This document shows, piece by piece, positions 7,410-22,206 of a stretch of 22,206 nucleotides of DNA. The position numbers and the translations under genes are program-made. The notes below the pieces were generated by a model. The model saw nothing but the letters and a program-made list of their open reading frames with translations. It ran no database searches and was not told the origin of the DNA. How positions within the stretch are numbered: position 1 is the stretch's first letter; the number at the start of each line of letters is the position of its first letter. The DNA is from a virus. The stretch covers positions 1 to 22,206 of the IMG/VR virus record IMGVR_UViG_3300025674_000447; one strand, written 5' to 3'.

Positions 7410-8060
7410 ATGAAACTAATCAGAGAAGAAATCGAAACAGTAGATTTTATCGTTGAAGAACGCAACGGTAAGAAGAGTCTTTATATCGAGGGTGTATTCC
7501 TTCAGGGCGATATTAAAAATCGCAATGGAAGAATGTATCCAATGGAAACTCTTCGCCGTGAGGTTGCAAGATACAATGAATCTAATGTGATTGCAGGTAG
7601 AGCACTTGGGGAACTCGGTCATCCAGATGGACCAACAGTAAATCTGGATCGTGTTTCTCACAAGATCGTTTCTTTAAAAGAAAGCGGTTCAAACTTTGTT
7701 GGTAAAGCAAAGATTCTCAGCACCCCAATGGGTAAGATTGCAGAATCTCTTATCAAAGAAGGTGTGAAACTTGGTGTTTCTTCTCGTGGTATTGGTTCAC
7801 TGAGACCAGACCGTGAAGGAGTTAACATTGTAGGTGATGACTTCATGCTTGCTACTGCAGCAGATATTGTTGCAGATCCTTCCGCTCCTGATGCTTTCGT
7901 TGAAGGTATCATGGAAGGTAAGGAGTGGGTTTGGGACGGTGGTATTCTCCGTGAGAGAGTAGCATCTAGGACCTACAAACAGATCAACACTCTCGTTGAT
8001 CAAAGAAGATTGGATGAGCATAAACTTAATCTTTTCCAAGATTTCTTAAATAGCATCTGA
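7410..8060 (+). CDS. gp21: Prohead maturation protease (gp21)
   Basis: Serine protease inside the prohead that cleaves the scaffold, core peptides and the gp23 N-terminus after Leu/Ile-x-Glu. The 216 residues match T4 gp21 (212). The family's herpesvirus-protease-like catalytic residues appear as His71 in GELGHPDG and Ser124 or Ser125 in GVSSRGIGS, followed by VADPSAPDAFVEG (about 154-166), which is also conserved. Only 4 nt separate it from the gene before, and no clear ribosome site is present, so coupling is likely. The scaffold gene follows, as in T4. The exact catalytic Ser is not decided from the sequence alone. Confidence 0.94.
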   Translation: MKLIREEIETVDFIVEERNGKKSLYIEGVFLQGDIKNRNGRMYPMETLRREVARYNESNVIAGRALGELGHPDGPTVNLDRVSHKIVSLKESGSNFVGKAKILSTPMGKIAESLIKEGVKLGVSSRGIGSLRPDREGVNIVGDDFMLATAADIVADPSAPDAFVEGIMEGKEWVWDGGILRERVASRTYKQINTLVDQRRLDEHKLNLFQDFLNSI

Positions 8061-17975: not shown

Positions 17976-18695
17976 ATGGCACAAAAAGTTTTAATCACTG
18001 GACATAAAGGTTTTATTGGGCAGCATGTATTTGCTGACTGGCAAGAAACTCATGGTGGATGGGTAACTGGATTGGATCGACCAGATGATGTTAGAGATTT
18101 TTCTGGTGGTGATTATGATCTTGTGATTCATCTGGCAGCATATGCAGACATTCGTGATAGTCAAGAGAATCCAGAGAAGTACTATGAGAACAATGTTGCC
18201 TCTGTAAGACCTTTGTTTGAGTGGTGTAGGGAAACTAATACGAGACTCCTTTACGCCTCTTCTAGCGCCGTAGAAGAGGGATACTGGGGCAATCCATATG
18301 CAATGACCAAGTGGATTAACGAACAGATGGCACCACCTAACTCTGTTGGTATGAGATTTACCACAGTTTATGGTCCTGGTGGTCGTGGTAATATGATGTA
18401 TGATCTGCTCAAAGACAAGAAAGCAAGTTATGTCACCAATCATAAGAGAGATTGGATTCATGTGAAAGATGTGTGCCGTGCCATTCGGTATCTTGCATCA
18501 AGTGATGTGACTGGACCTGTGACGATTGGAACTGGTGAATCTGTAGCGGTGAAAGATCTTGCGAAAGCATTCGGTCAAGGTCATCTTCCAGTTCTTGAAG
18601 ATACGCCTGGAGAAAGACAAGATAATGTTGCGGACATATCTATCATGAAGAGTATTGGTTGGTTTCCAACAGTTGATATTTTCTCAACGATCTGA
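17976..18695 (+). CDS. NAD-dependent epimerase/dehydratase (extended SDR), short form
   Basis: Likely acts on a nucleotide sugar. The 239 residues begin with the Rossmann motif GHKGFIG (residues 9-15, GxxGxxG), followed by IHLAAYADIRDS (about 51-62), LLYASSSAV with the catalytic Ser (about 95-97) and YAMTK with Tyr108 and Lys112. RFTTVYGPGGRGNMM (about 127-141) and WIHVKDVCRAI (about 160-170) are also typical of GalE-like epimerases. It is shorter than the usual 310-340 residues, mainly in the substrate-binding part, so the substrate may be unusual. It follows gp46 by 1 nt and overlaps the sulfotransferase gene (TGATG). Host-surface or fibre modification is possible but not shown. Confidence 0.85.
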   Translation: MAQKVLITGHKGFIGQHVFADWQETHGGWVTGLDRPDDVRDFSGGDYDLVIHLAAYADIRDSQENPEKYYENNVASVRPLFEWCRETNTRLLYASSSAVEEGYWGNPYAMTKWINEQMAPPNSVGMRFTTVYGPGGRGNMMYDLLKDKKASYVTNHKRDWIHVKDVCRAIRYLASSDVTGPVTIGTGESVAVKDLAKAFGQGHLPVLEDTPGERQDNVADISIMKSIGWFPTVDIFSTI

Positions 18696-19300
18696 TGCCC
18701 ACTTATCGTCATAAGAATACAGGCACCAGATTTTTATTCGTTCATATTCCTAGAACTGCTGGAAGATTTATAGAGGAAAACATTCTTATTAACGAATTTG
18801 AATGTGAACAAAAAAAGATTTGGAAAAGTGAGTGTGGAGTGGAGATTGCTCACTTTCACAAAGAACTTTATATGAAATTTCTCAATGTTTCTGGAGTACC
18901 TCACATAACCATTGTTAGGGATCCTGTAGATAGATTTTTCTCTACTTCAATATTTTTAAAACGAATGTATGGAAATGATATTGAACAGTTACTGGAAGAT
19001 GAAAATACTTTCTTTTCAATGATAGAAAACTTTCCTCTTCCACAATCAATGAACTGGTTTAGACCACAAGTTGATTTTATTGGAGAAGAAACTCATGTAT
19101 GGAAATATGAGAATGGATTTCAACAAGATTTCTCTGATTGGATGACTTCTATTCTTGGTATTGATTTTAAGATTGAAAAACTAAAATACTCATCATTGAC
19201 TACTGATGAGTCTAATAAAGTGCAGAGAAGACCTAAAATCATACAAAATGTTAAACGTCTCTACGCAAAAGACTATAATACGCTATACCAAAATAAATAG
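18695..19300 (+). CDS. Sulfotransferase-family protein
   Basis: Probably moves sulfate from PAPS to a sugar or protein. The 201 residues show the two PAPS-binding elements: FLFVHIPRTAGRFIEENI (about 13-30), with HIPRTAG as the 5'-phosphosulfate loop, and ITIVRDPVDRFFST (about 71-84), where Arg75 and Ser83 would hold the 3'-phosphate. The loop has Arg where many members have Lys (HIPKTAG), which could weaken or change activity. The C-terminal half is lysine-rich and less typical. The ATG overlaps the epimerase stop, so the two probably act in one pathway that modifies a glycan. An AATAAATA box overlaps its TAG stop. Confidence 0.8.
   Translation: MPTYRHKNTGTRFLFVHIPRTAGRFIEENILINEFECEQKKIWKSECGVEIAHFHKELYMKFLNVSGVPHITIVRDPVDRFFSTSIFLKRMYGNDIEQLLEDENTFFSMIENFPLPQSMNWFRPQVDFIGEETHVWKYENGFQQDFSDWMTSILGIDFKIEKLKYSSLTTDESNKVQRRPKIIQNVKRLYAKDYNTLYQNK
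19292..19299 (+). promoter_or_regulatory. Late box AATAAATA at the end of the sulfotransferase gene
   Basis: This exact copy of the late octamer overlaps the TAG stop and lies 19 nt before the ATG of the small frame at 19319. The spacing is slightly shorter than at the head genes. Confidence 0.45.
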
Positions 19301-19468: not shown

Positions 19469-19523
19469 ACAGTTCAAAAAGAGTCACATGACCTCGCCCA
19501 AAAGGCGGGGTTCTTTTGTATGA
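19377..19523 (+). CDS. Possible small, strongly basic protein (48 residues)
   Basis: From ATG at 19377 to TGA at 19521, the frame encodes 48 residues with nine Lys, six Arg and three His but only one Asp and no Glu. It starts MNTPNWQHHSKKDQKRKLKP and contains a helix-like stretch RQAKARLRQFKK. Such composition fits a nucleic-acid-binding peptide. AGGG lies only 2 nt before the ATG, so the ribosome site is poor. The last codons run through the terminator hairpin at 19492-19517. It overlaps the acidic frame at 19319. The function is unknown. Confidence 0.45.
   Translation: MNTPNWQHHSKKDQKRKLKPQALRQAKARLRQFKKSHMTSPKRRGSFV
19492..19517 (+). terminator. Intrinsic terminator before the HEXXH/VWA gene
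   Basis: CCTCGCC (19492-19498) pairs with GGCGGGG (19504-19510), with one G-T pair, around a CAAAA loop, and TTCTTTT follows (19511-19517). It closes the epimerase-sulfotransferase transcript just ahead of the next promoter. It overlaps the 3' end of the basic small frame. Confidence 0.75.
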
Positions 19524-19538
19524 TACGTTCATACGCAA
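19519..19538 (+). promoter_or_regulatory. -10 element and leader shared with the CobS gene
   Basis: The 20 bases from TATGAT onward match 21738-21757 at 17 positions; all three differences are G to A. TATGAT would be the -10, with a start near 19531 and a leader of about 15 nt without a ribosome site. No good -35 is seen at 17 nt, where the terminator stem lies, so an activator may be needed. Confidence 0.6.
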
Positions 19539-19545
19539 CAAATCA

Positions 19546-21696
19546 ATGCTCAAGCACGAAATCAAATCTCAACTTGCTAAACTGCTTGCCACTGAGGACC
19601 TGGTGGTTGAGCACAAGAAAGTCCAAACTGCTAGTTTCAATGTCCACACTCGTGTTCTGACTCTTCCTAACTGGGATAAAGCAAGTAATGATGTCTATGA
19701 CCTTCTTGTGGGTCATGAAGTTGGTCACGCACTGTTTACTCCAGATGTTGATTGGATTAAAGAACGTAAGATTCCCCCTCAGTTTGTGAACGTTGTTGAA
19801 GATGTTCGTATTGAGAAACTTATGAAGCGCAAGTATCTTGGTCTCCCTAAGACTTTTTACAAGGGATACAAAGAACTTAATGATATGAACTTTTTTGAGG
19901 TTGACGATGATATCTCTACTTACAATCTTGCTGATCGTGTTAATCTGTTTTACAAAATTGGAAATTTCCTTCCCATCACTTTCACTGAGGAGGAGCAAAA
20001 GATTGTTGACCAGATCGCTTCCACTGACACCTTTGAAGATGTCTTGGACGCTGCAGAAGCTCTGTATGCCTACTGTAAGGAAGAGTCGGAAAAAACTAAA
20101 GTTCCTGAACTAGACAATCTGGATATCAAGAATCAAACAAGTGGCAGTGGTGGTCAGATTTCTGAGCAACCTCAAGAATCTGAGGAGGGGGAAAATGATG
20201 AAGGAGAAAGTGAAGAAACTGAAACTAATCAAACTCCATCTGCTGGTGGAGGTGGAAAGGTAGATCAATCTTCTCTAGAGAATGGTGTTGATGATGACAT
20301 TGATATCAAAACTGAAGCCACTCTTGAGAGTAATCTGAAAGAACTGAATAGTGCTTCAAACTTTGAAGAGACTGTATATCTTGAGGTTCCTCAAGTGAAT
20401 CTTGACACCATTGTGATTCCAAACAAAGATATTCATCAAGAGTGTGATAAGTTCTATGCAGACATGATTGAACAAATGCCAGATATCTATCAAAACTCTG
20501 ATGACTTATTCAATAAGTTTAAGAAGTCTGCTCAGAAAGAAGTTAACTATCTGGTCAAGGAGTTTGAGTGTCGCAAGTCTGCAAGTTCATACGCTCGTGC
20601 AACCACTAGTCGTACTGGTGTTCTGGACTGTGCCAAACTTCACACTTACAAGTTTAATGAAGATCTCTTCAAGAAAGTGACAGTTCTTCCTGATGGAAAG
20701 AATCATGGTCTGATCTTTGTTTGTGATTGGTCTGGATCAATGGGTAATGTTCTGCTTGATACTATCAAACAGATGTTCCAACTTGTTTGGTTCTGTAAAA
20801 AGGTTCAGATTCCTTTTGAAGTTTATGCTTTCACCACAGAGTGGTGGTCTACACCACACAACAAGAATGGTGTACCACAGTTTCCAACTAAGCACTATGA
20901 AAAGAAAGAGAATCTCTTAGCTATTCATGAACAGTTCAATATGCTGCAGATTCTGACAAGTGAGATTTCTAATCGAGAGTTTGATAAGCAACTGAATAGT
21001 ATCTGGAGAGTTGCAACTCATTATAGTGCTCGTTACTATGCTGCTCCGATTCCAGATTTTCTCCACCTTTGCGGAACTCCTTTGAATGAGGCGATCATTT
21101 CTCTCTTCAAAATTATCCCTAACTTTAAAACTAAGACTTCTGCCGAAAAAGTTAATGTTGTGATCTTGACTGATGGTGAGTCAAATCATCTTTCTCGTCA
21201 TCGTGAGATTAAGCGTCACTGGGAAGCAGAATCTTTTATTGGATATGGATCTATTCCATATGGTTCTATGCTCCGAGATCGTAAACTTGGAACCACCTAT
21301 GATCTGTATGGGCAAAATGATTGTGACTCTACTTCAGTGACACAGTGCCTTCTCCGTAATCTATCTGAACGTTTTCCAACTGAAAATCTGATTGGAATCC
21401 GTGTCTGTGAAGGTCGGGAGTTTAATACACATCTTCGTCGTTACATTGGATGGTATAATCATTCCCTTGAGGAAAAGATAATCAAACAATGGAAGAAAGA
21501 GAAGGCAGTTTCTATTCCAAACTCTTCTTATAAAGCATACTTTACTCTTTCATCCAGTGCTTTGTCTGAAGACTCTGAGTTTAAGGTTGAAGATGATGCT
21601 ACAAAAGCACAGATTCGCAGTGCATTCAAGAAATCTCTTGGTGCTAAGAAAACAAACAAGAAAATTCTTAGTCAGTTCATTGAACTGGTCGCTTGA
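19546..21696 (+). CDS. CobT-like protein with an N-terminal HEXXH metallopeptidase-type motif and a C-terminal VWA domain
   Basis: The ATG at 19546 gives 716 residues; an in-frame TTG at 19516 lies in the terminator T-run and -10 and is rejected. The N-terminal part has GHEVGHALF (His57-Glu58-x-x-His61) and, 24 residues later, VVEDVRIEKLMKRKYLG (Glu85), the order seen in HEXXH zinc proteins and also reminiscent of CobT/NorD N-termini. A long Glu/Ser/Gly linker follows (about 195-265). The C-terminal half is a von Willebrand A domain with the metal site DWSGSM (Asp394, Ser396, Ser398) and VVILTDGESNH near 542. It precedes a CobS-type AAA+ gene, so a MoxR/CobS-VWA pair is likely. Cyanophage copies are commonly labelled peptidase; activity is not shown. 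Confidence 0.85.
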   Translation: MLKHEIKSQLAKLLATEDLVVEHKKVQTASFNVHTRVLTLPNWDKASNDVYDLLVGHEVGHALFTPDVDWIKERKIPPQFVNVVEDVRIEKLMKRKYLGLPKTFYKGYKELNDMNFFEVDDDISTYNLADRVNLFYKIGNFLPITFTEEEQKIVDQIASTDTFEDVLDAAEALYAYCKEESEKTKVPELDNLDIKNQTSGSGGQISEQPQESEEGENDEGESEETETNQTPSAGGGGKVDQSSLENGVDDDIDIKTEATLESNLKELNSASNFEETVYLEVPQVNLDTIVIPNKDIHQECDKFYADMIEQMPDIYQNSDDLFNKFKKSAQKEVNYLVKEFECRKSASSYARATTSRTGVLDCAKLHTYKFNEDLFKKVTVLPDGKNHGLIFVCDWSGSMGNVLLDTIKQMFQLVWFCKKVQIPFEVYAFTTEWWSTPHNKNGVPQFPTKHYEKKENLLAIHEQFNMLQILTSEISNREFDKQLNSIWRVATHYSARYYAAPIPDFLHLCGTPLNEAIISLFKIIPNFKTKTSAEKVNVVILTDGESNHLSRHREIKRHWEAESFIGYGSIPYGSMLRDRKLGTTYDLYGQNDCDSTSVTQCLLRNLSERFPTENLIGIRVCEGREFNTHLRRYIGWYNHSLEEKIIKQWKKEKAVSIPNSSYKAYFTLSSSALSEDSEFKVEDDATKAQIRSAFKKSLGAKKTNKKILSQFIELVA

Positions 21697-21714
21697 GGAA
21701 CTGTCCACTTCCCC

Positions 21715-21743
21715 TTTACTGGGGTCTCAAAGACCCCTATAAT
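21715..21743 (+). promoter_or_regulatory. Sigma70-type promoter of the CobS gene
   Basis: TTTACT (21715-21720) and TATAAT (21738-21743) are 17 nt apart; the -10 is perfect and the -35 matches four of six. Transcription would start near 21750, giving a leader of about 19 nt with no clear ribosome site. The downstream bases are shared with the leader at 19519. Confidence 0.75.
21721..21737 (+). other. Palindrome filling the promoter spacer before cobS
   Basis: GGGGTCT (21721-21727) pairs perfectly with AGACCCC (21731-21737) around CAA, occupying exactly the 17-nt spacer between -35 and -10. CCCC at 21711-21714 can instead pair with GGGG at 21721-21724, so two forms compete in RNA read through from upstream. 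There is no T-run. It may end the upstream transcript weakly or serve as an operator. Confidence 0.5.
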
Positions 21744-21768
21744 ACATTCATACACAAACACCCAAACC

Positions 21769-22206
21769 ATGACTCGTGTGAACCCTGAACAACTGATCGA
21801 AGACCTGACCACTCTCTACGGAACGGAACTGACTACTGCTGACATCAAGGGGTATTGTGCTGCTAATGATATTTCTTATCCGACTGTGACTCGTAAACTC
21901 GAACAGTTCAAGACTTCTCGTGGTCGTTGGAATCTTGAAGTGACTACCGAAGATATCAAACAAATCGAAAAATCCTTTGCTTCTCCCTCTGTGCAACCTG
22001 CATTTGAACAAAACCTGATTCCTCAGAAAGATGCCAACTTTGTTTCTTTTGGTAACTTCTCTGATGTGAAAAAGATTATCAAGTCTGGGATGTTCTACCC
22101 TACTTTCATCACGGGTCTTTCGGGAAATGGTAAAACGTTCTCGGTGGAGCAAGCATGTGCTCAACTTGGACGAGAACTCATCCGTGTAAACATTACTATT
22201 GAAACT
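21769..22206 (+). CDS. cobS: CobS-like AAA+ ATPase (3' truncated by the window)
   Basis: The frame is open from ATG at 21769 to the window end, 146 residues. The first 85 residues form a small N-terminal domain with a helical start (NPEQLIEDLTTLYGTELT) that looks like a winged-helix or CobS N-terminal region. The AAA+ core then begins, with Walker A GLSGNGKTFSVEQA (about 116-129) preceded by FYPTFIT, followed by LGRELIRVNITIET, the usual CobS order. Cyanophages widely carry a gene called cobS, for the AAA+ subunit of cobaltochelatase. It follows the VWA gene by 72 nt under its own promoter. Whether it makes cobalamin or is a MoxR-type chaperone is unresolved. Confidence 0.88.
   Translation, partial: MTRVNPEQLIEDLTTLYGTELTTADIKGYCAANDISYPTVTRKLEQFKTSRGRWNLEVTTEDIKQIEKSFASPSVQPAFEQNLIPQKDANFVSFGNFSDVKKIIKSGMFYPTFITGLSGNGKTFSVEQACAQLGRELIRVNITIET

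What the first reader, a model, noticed from the sequence alone, without database searches (positions are those of the whole stretch)
19546..22206. HEXXH-VWA protein paired with a CobS-type AAA+ ATPase
A 716-residue protein joins an HEVGH zinc motif with a downstream EDVRIE element, a long acidic linker and a VWA domain with an intact DxSxS site. The next gene is a CobS-type ATPase. In cobaltochelatase, CobS and CobT (AAA+ and VWA) work with CobN, but CobN is not seen here. The pair could instead be a self-contained chaperone or protease machine, in which the ATPase loads or remodels a target and the HEXXH part cuts it. The cobS name used for phage copies may hide this.
Basis: partly seen in the sequence, partly recalled or inferred. 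Interest (0 to 1): 0.6.

Follow-up and report, generated by a model that had tools for sequence, protein, structure and literature searches.

The report
Cyanophage HEXXH-VWA protein with MoxR ATPase
A gene pair that nearly all marine T4-like phages carry under the vitamin-B12 name "cobS" plus a neighbouring "peptidase" looks like an ATP-driven protein-remodelling machine with an intact zinc-protease site, not like the vitamin-B12 cobalt inserter it was named after; similar predictions are already in print for other phages.

Summary
The window is a fragment of a T4-like marine cyanophage or pelagiphage relative. Window 19546-21696 encodes 716 aa with HEVGH (57-61), EDVRIE (85-90), an acidic linker and a VWA domain with intact MIDAS. 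A MoxR/CobS-like AAA+ ATPase starts at 21769; a contig with an identical HEXXH gene shows it complete (366 aa).

HEXXH, E85/D86 and the MIDAS residues are invariant in every relative that covers them (186/186, 188/188, 204/204). Samples drawn through the ATPase alone agree (46/46, 47/47). AlphaFold gives a confident N-domain (pLDDT 92) whose structural neighbours are nearly all HEXXH zincins, though only at Z 7 or below. The pair is co-encoded in 89 of 94 testable viral loci, inside the gp46 - pair - gp45 - gp44 replication module.

It is not a cobaltochelatase CobT: the CobT model does not match, 80/80 cellular CobT lack HEXXH, and eight complete phages carrying such pairs have no CobN. Two isolates infect a B12-auxotrophic host.

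Substrate and activity remain unknown.

The parts
19546..21696 (+). HEXXH-VWA protein, 716 aa (PHROG 459 'peptidase')
   Evidence: phrog_459, E 1.9e-258; 463 phage records
19546..20109 (+). N-terminal domain (aa 1-188), predicted gluzincin fold; active-site helix 48-64, third-ligand helix 78-96
   Evidence: AlphaFold2 pLDDT 92.4; VIA-align neighbours mostly zincins, best Z 7.0
19714..19728 (+). HEVGH motif, aa 57-61
   Evidence: invariant H, E and H in 186/186 rows
19798..19815 (+). EDVRIE element, aa 85-90; E85 is the likely third metal ligand (inference from zincin anatomy)
   Evidence: E85 and D86 invariant 188/188
20101..20292 (+). acidic, low-confidence linker, aa about 186-249
   Evidence: pLDDT below 50; poorly conserved
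20521..21693 (+). VWA domain with inserts and C-terminal helix, aa about 326-716
   Evidence: best structural matches midasin MIDAS domain Z 17.0 and NorD VWA Z 15.0
20725..20739 (+). MIDAS DWSGS, aa 394-398 (further MIDAS residues T511 and D543)
   Evidence: invariant D, S and S in 204/204 rows
21769..22206 (+). MoxR/CobS-like AAA+ ATPase, first 146 aa, cut by the window end; complete in L004:4098-5198
   Evidence: phrog_249; midasin and CobS matches in PDB
19490..19512 (+). terminator-like hairpin upstream of the HEXXH-VWA gene
19519..19534 (+). -10-like motif TATGATACGTTCATAC upstream of the HEXXH-VWA gene
21738..21753 (+). -10-like motif TATAATACATTCATAC upstream of the ATPase gene, same motif as at 19519
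   Evidence: only two exact matches in the window, one before each gene

Best explanation
The pair is a MoxR-class AAA+/VWA remodelling machine whose VWA subunit carries an intact, probably active HEXXH zinc-metallopeptidase domain. By analogy with NorQ-NorD and midasin, the AAA+ hexamer would hold the VWA domain on its pore, the MIDAS site would grip a target protein, and ATP turnover would twist or pull the target. The tethered zincin domain, on its flexible acidic linker, would then cut the remodelled target or a regulatory segment. The target is probably a phage or host protein of the replication, recombination or late-transcription stage, judging by the fixed position between gp46 and gp45/gp44. 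Shown: intact and invariant motifs, confident predicted zincin-like architecture, midasin/NorD-like VWA, conserved gene pairing and position. Inferred: zinc binding, proteolysis, complex formation, order of events, target class.
For: HEXXH and E85/D86 are invariant in all covering relatives, including samples drawn through the ATPase alone. N-domain model pLDDT 92.4 with helix, three strands, HEXXH helix, ED helix; structural neighbours nearly all HEXXH zincins such as ArdC, abylysin, selecase, IrrE, BepA, ZMPSTE24. VWA matches the midasin MIDAS domain (Z 17.0) and NorD (Z 15.0); the ATPase matches midasin, CobS, NorQ and CbbQ by sequence. Gene pair in 89 of 94 loci with at least 2.6 kb upstream; gp46 upstream 71/77, gp45 downstream 49/50, gp44 45/50. 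Unrelated phages SSU5, nickie and ICP2 keep their pair next to DNA polymerase, ligase or primase genes.
Against: No assay. VIA-align Z of 7 or less is below the level that the tool calls clear, and Foldseek found no significant PDB match for the N-domain. A related phage pair (nickie) has lost HEXXH but keeps VWA and ATPase, so proteolysis is not essential to every such machine. Complex formation was not modelled.
Confidence: 0.52

Rival explanations
1. Viral cobaltochelatase: the phage CobST-like pair drives host CobN to insert cobalt and boost B12 production (Liu et al. 2021, PMC8651126).
For: The partner is distantly related to CobS (TIGR01650, 69.5 bits). Cyanobacteria have CobN but no cobS or cobT (PMC9227772).
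Against: The partner is far below the CobS cut-off (69.5 vs 558.6 bits) and the VWA protein has no match to CobT TIGR01651, while a cellular control pair passes both. 80/80 cellular CobT lack HEXXH. Pelagiphages HTVC008M and EXVC030M, both on HTCC1062, keep the gene, although SAR11 is a B12 auxotroph (PMC9296465). Eight complete phage genomes have no CobN.
Confidence: 0.1
2. Non-proteolytic metal-delivery chaperone: the HEXXH site holds a metal that the AAA+/VWA motor loads into a phage or host metalloenzyme, as NorQD does with iron.
For: NorQD and CobST, the nearest characterised relatives, insert metals (PMC13036017). Nickie keeps the machine without HEXXH.
Against: NorQD works without any HEXXH site in the papers read (no mention of zinc or HExxH). 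Strict conservation of the catalytic E58 is expected for hydrolysis, less so for simple metal storage.
Confidence: 0.2
3. Virion-assembly protease-chaperone that processes structural proteins, as Iyer et al. 2021 propose for group 2.2 jumbo phages.
For: Same architecture predicted (PMC7824862); T4-like phages do process head proteins (own knowledge).
Against: Here the pair sits in the replication and recombination module, not among virion genes: gp46 upstream in 71/77 and gp45 downstream in 49/50 testable loci. The virion protease homologue gp21 is encoded separately at 7410-8060 (own reading of the ORF list).
Confidence: 0.13

Closest known systems
MoxR plus metallopeptidase-vWA pair of group 2.2 jumbo phages (Iyer et al. 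2021, PMC7824862)
   Same: MoxR AAA+ gene beside a vWA protein with an N-terminal metallopeptidase domain
   Different: Described for group 2.2; P-SSM2-type cyanophages are group 2.1 in that paper. Whether ASV44728 is in this family was not tested.
Cobaltochelatase CobS-CobT
   Same: AAA+ plus VWA with acidic linker; the N-domain appears distantly related through SSU5-type phage CobT
   Different: HEXXH lost in 80/80 cellular CobT; curated CobT and CobS models not met; no CobN in these phages
NorQ-NorD
   Same: MoxR AAA+ with VWA finger domain; VWA match Z 15.0
   Different: N-domain function differs; no HEXXH reported in the papers read
Midasin (Rea1/MDN1)
   Same: Closest solved AAA+ match by sequence and closest VWA/MIDAS match by structure
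   Different: Single giant chain acting on pre-ribosomes; no zincin domain known to me
CLCA proteins (PMC3650047)
   Same: HExxH zincin combined with VWA in one chain (own knowledge; paper found)
   Different: Animal secreted proteins without an AAA+ partner

Membership tests
PHROG 459 (cyanophage 'peptidase') | full-length match to the family profile | tested here: met
   E 1.9e-258 over profile positions 1-736
HEXXH gluzincin metallopeptidase | HEXXH on a helix plus a downstream Glu on a second helix | tested here: met
   HEVGH in helix 48-64, E85 in helix 78-96; invariant
HEXXH gluzincin metallopeptidase | zincin fold | tested here: inconclusive
   neighbours nearly all zincins but best Z 7.0, no significant Foldseek match
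HEXXH gluzincin metallopeptidase | zinc binding and proteolysis | not testable with these tools
   needs bench work
Cobaltochelatase CobT (TIGR01651) | curated model cut-off 759 bits | tested here: not met
   no TIGR01651 match; only TIGR02442 at 15.2 bits (cut-off 779); Sphingomonas control 838.8 bits
Cobaltochelatase CobS (TIGR01650) | curated model cut-off 558.55 bits | tested here: not met
   partner 69.5 bits; Sphingomonas control 599.4 bits
Cobaltochelatase CobNST | CobN partner encoded by phage or host | tested here: inconclusive
   absent from eight complete phage genomes; cyanobacteria have CobN; SAR11 is a B12 auxotroph; the host of this contig is unknown
MoxR AAA+/VWA machine | adjacent AAA_5/CbbQ-type ATPase and VWA protein with MIDAS | tested here: met
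   PF07728 1.7e-18 and weak CbbQ_C; VWA structure match; pairing 89/94
MoxR AAA+/VWA machine | physical AAA+-VWA complex | not tested
   no complex prediction available
DUF2201_N (PF13203) metallopeptidase-VWA | match to the Pfam model | tested here: inconclusive
   no Pfam match to the window protein; profile-profile comparison not possible

The most novel reading that the evidence does not exclude
The cyanophage core gene cobS and its neighbour are not auxiliary B12 genes but an ATP-driven metalloprotease-chaperone, and the CobT subunit of cobaltochelatase descends from such a HEXXH-bearing machine that lost its zinc site.
Probability: 0.35. Interest if true: 0.68.

Novelty: new member of a known kind. 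Interest (0 to 1): 0.45.

Why it matters
cobS is among the often counted "auxiliary metabolic genes" of ocean viruses and is read as a sign that phages boost host B12. If the pair is a protease-chaperone tied to replication, those counts are misread, and a core function of very abundant marine phages is open to a direct test with E58 and MIDAS mutants. It also bears on two conflicting published readings of the same genes and suggests an origin for the CobT N-domain.

Tried and rejected
Pfam, NCBIfam and PADLOC gave no informative match for the HEXXH-VWA protein. Direct profile comparison of the phage N-domain with cellular CobT was weak (probability 20%); the link rests on the SSU5-type intermediate (96%, E 4e-9; SSU5 to cellular 37%, E 3.5e-4). 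PF06213 covers both SSU5 and Caulobacter, but may include phage members, so it is not independent. CobT was not among the VIA-align rows for either model; this says nothing either way. HEHYH/HEYYH proteins downstream in L186, L197 and L203 were dismissed as metallophosphoesterases (GNHE motif). The genome-collection scan with the broad CobS alignment failed and was replaced by a CobT scan. A class-wide CobN count in alphaproteobacteria could not be tied to named SAR11 genomes and is not used as evidence. A search for cyanophage expression timing found nothing. DUF2201 relatives could not be collected. Conservation counted is biased because HEVGH was part of the search pattern; the unbiased counts are those.

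Full report
What the window is. The ORFs run terminase, sheath, tube, portal, protease, scaffold, capsid, UvsW, gp55, gp47 and gp46 (profile matches for terminase, UvsW, gp55, gp47 and gp46, the rest by order and own knowledge of T4-like phages). G000 is a virus record of 22,206 bases. The relatives are mostly marine T4-like phages of Synechococcus, Prochlorococcus and Pelagibacter; among named phage records the best is 54% identical over the HEXXH protein.

Checking the observation. All described features are present. The ATG start at 19546 is right: a motif TATRATACRTTCATAC lies at 19519-19534, inside the longer TTG reading, and the only other exact copy in the window is at 21738-21753, just before the ATPase gene. 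A -10-like TATAAT or TATAGT element, in several cases following a hairpin-like stretch, also precedes the two genes in P-SSM2 and L009 (by eye). The ATPase is cut by the window end, but contig L004, whose HEXXH protein is 100% identical, holds it entire.

Conservation. Relatives found through the HEXXH protein would be biased, since HEVGH was a search word. I therefore also drew loci through the ATPase alone. In those sets H57, E58 and H61 are intact in 46/46 and 47/47 rows that cover the site; over all rows the counts are 186/186 for HEXXH, 188/188 for E85 and D86, and 204/204 for the DxSxS residues. In 61 diverse sequences (28-79% identical to the window) only 37 of 716 columns are invariant, and these include H57, E58, H61, N82, E85, D86, R88, E90, D394, S396, S398 and D543. 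An active-site reading explains this best.

Structure. The N-domain is predicted with pLDDT 92.4 as helix, three strands, the HEXXH helix 48-64 and the ED helix 78-96. No Foldseek match in the PDB is significant. In the VIA-align second look nearly all leading rows are HEXXH zincins: ArdC Z 7.0, ZMPSTE24 6.4, abylysin 6.1, selecase 5.8, BepA 5.6, IrrE 5.4. These scores are modest; their uniformity and the placement of the motifs carry the argument. In the full-length model the VWA part matches the midasin MIDAS domain (Z 17.0, rmsd 3.6, 224 aligned) and NorD (Z 15.0, rmsd 4.7, 225 aligned). The ATPase matches midasin (2e-53), CobS, NorQ and CbbQ by sequence. Among predicted viral structures the N-domain matches other viral CobT-like proteins significantly, and those of haloarchaeal tailed viruses weakly.

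Pairing and position. Of 94 ATPase loci with at least 2.6 kb upstream, 89 have the HEXXH-VWA gene upstream on the same strand. Of the other five, L182 has it on the opposite strand, L199 has an SSU5-type HEXXH protein, and three show none. gp46 lies upstream in 71/77 and gp45 downstream in 49/50 testable loci of the near set; in the distant set the figures are 25/29 and 26/32. SSU5, nickie and ICP2, which are other kinds of phage, also keep their pair beside replication genes. This argues for a task near replication or late transcription rather than for virion assembly or vitamin synthesis, but it is only context.

Not a cobaltochelatase. A Sphingomonas CobT/CobS pair passes the curated models (838.8 and 599.4 bits); the phage ATPase scores 69.5 bits and the HEXXH-VWA protein does not match CobT. 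In 80 of 80 alphaproteobacterial CobT the HEXXH position reads like D-S-F-A-L-R, while the downstream E and mostly the R-x-E persist. SSU5-type phage CobT forms the bridge: HEVAH and EDVFIE, significant to the cyanophage domain and collinear with cellular CobT. The most economical reading is that cellular CobT has a zincin-derived N-domain that lost its site; this is inference, and the cellular sample is nearly all alphaproteobacterial. CobN is missing from eight complete phage genomes, and two pelagiphages on HTCC1062 keep the gene although SAR11 is a B12 auxotroph. Even among 18 alphaproteobacterial genomes chosen for having CobT, 9 show no CobN (some may be incomplete).

Prior art. Two published readings conflict. 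Liu et al. 2021 (PMC8651126) hold that cyanophage cobT is mistakenly annotated as a peptidase and that viral CobST hijacks host CobN. Iyer et al. 2021 (PMC7824862) propose a MoxR plus metallopeptidase-vWA chaperone pair for group 2.2 jumbo phages. The evidence here favours the second kind of reading for cyanophages, but puts the pair in the replication module.

Mechanism. The proposal is that the AAA+ ring turns the VWA domain, as proposed from NorQD structures (PMC13036017), the MIDAS grips the target, and the tethered zincin cuts it. Only the anatomy is shown; activity, target and complex are inferred. Loss of HEXXH in nickie shows that the motor can outlive the protease site, which keeps the metal-delivery rival alive.

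Verdict. A correct and well-conserved observation, largely anticipated in print, with moderate interest because it makes the function of a core marine phage gene pair directly testable and weakens a widely used B12 reading.

Noticed in passing
L258-L337; genomes G001-G018: Half (9/18) of alphaproteobacterial genomes that carry a CobT gene show no CobN, so cellular CobST may also have a CobN-free role.
   Followed up: partly
L013:1358-3442: Pseudomonas phage nickie has a CobT-like protein in the same kind of pair whose HEXXH is lost (DSEISK), a natural dead-site version.
   Followed up: partly
L014:1970-3712: Vibrio phage ICP2 CobT-like protein has HECYH followed by N-x-x-V-D-H-N-I-E, with V in place of E85, so the third metal ligand may differ.
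   Followed up: no
L009:7208-8347: A 379-aa gene without Pfam match lies between the HEXXH-VWA and ATPase genes; other phages carry other inserts there.
   Followed up: no
window 17976-19300: A nucleotide-sugar epimerase and a sulfotransferase-like gene lie between gp46 and the HEXXH-VWA gene; P-SSM2 has a 2OG-Fe(II) oxygenase and an HNH endonuclease there.
   Followed up: no
window 19519-19534 and 21738-21753: Same -10-like motif before both genes of the pair; exact copies in 9 of 338 loci.
   Followed up: partly
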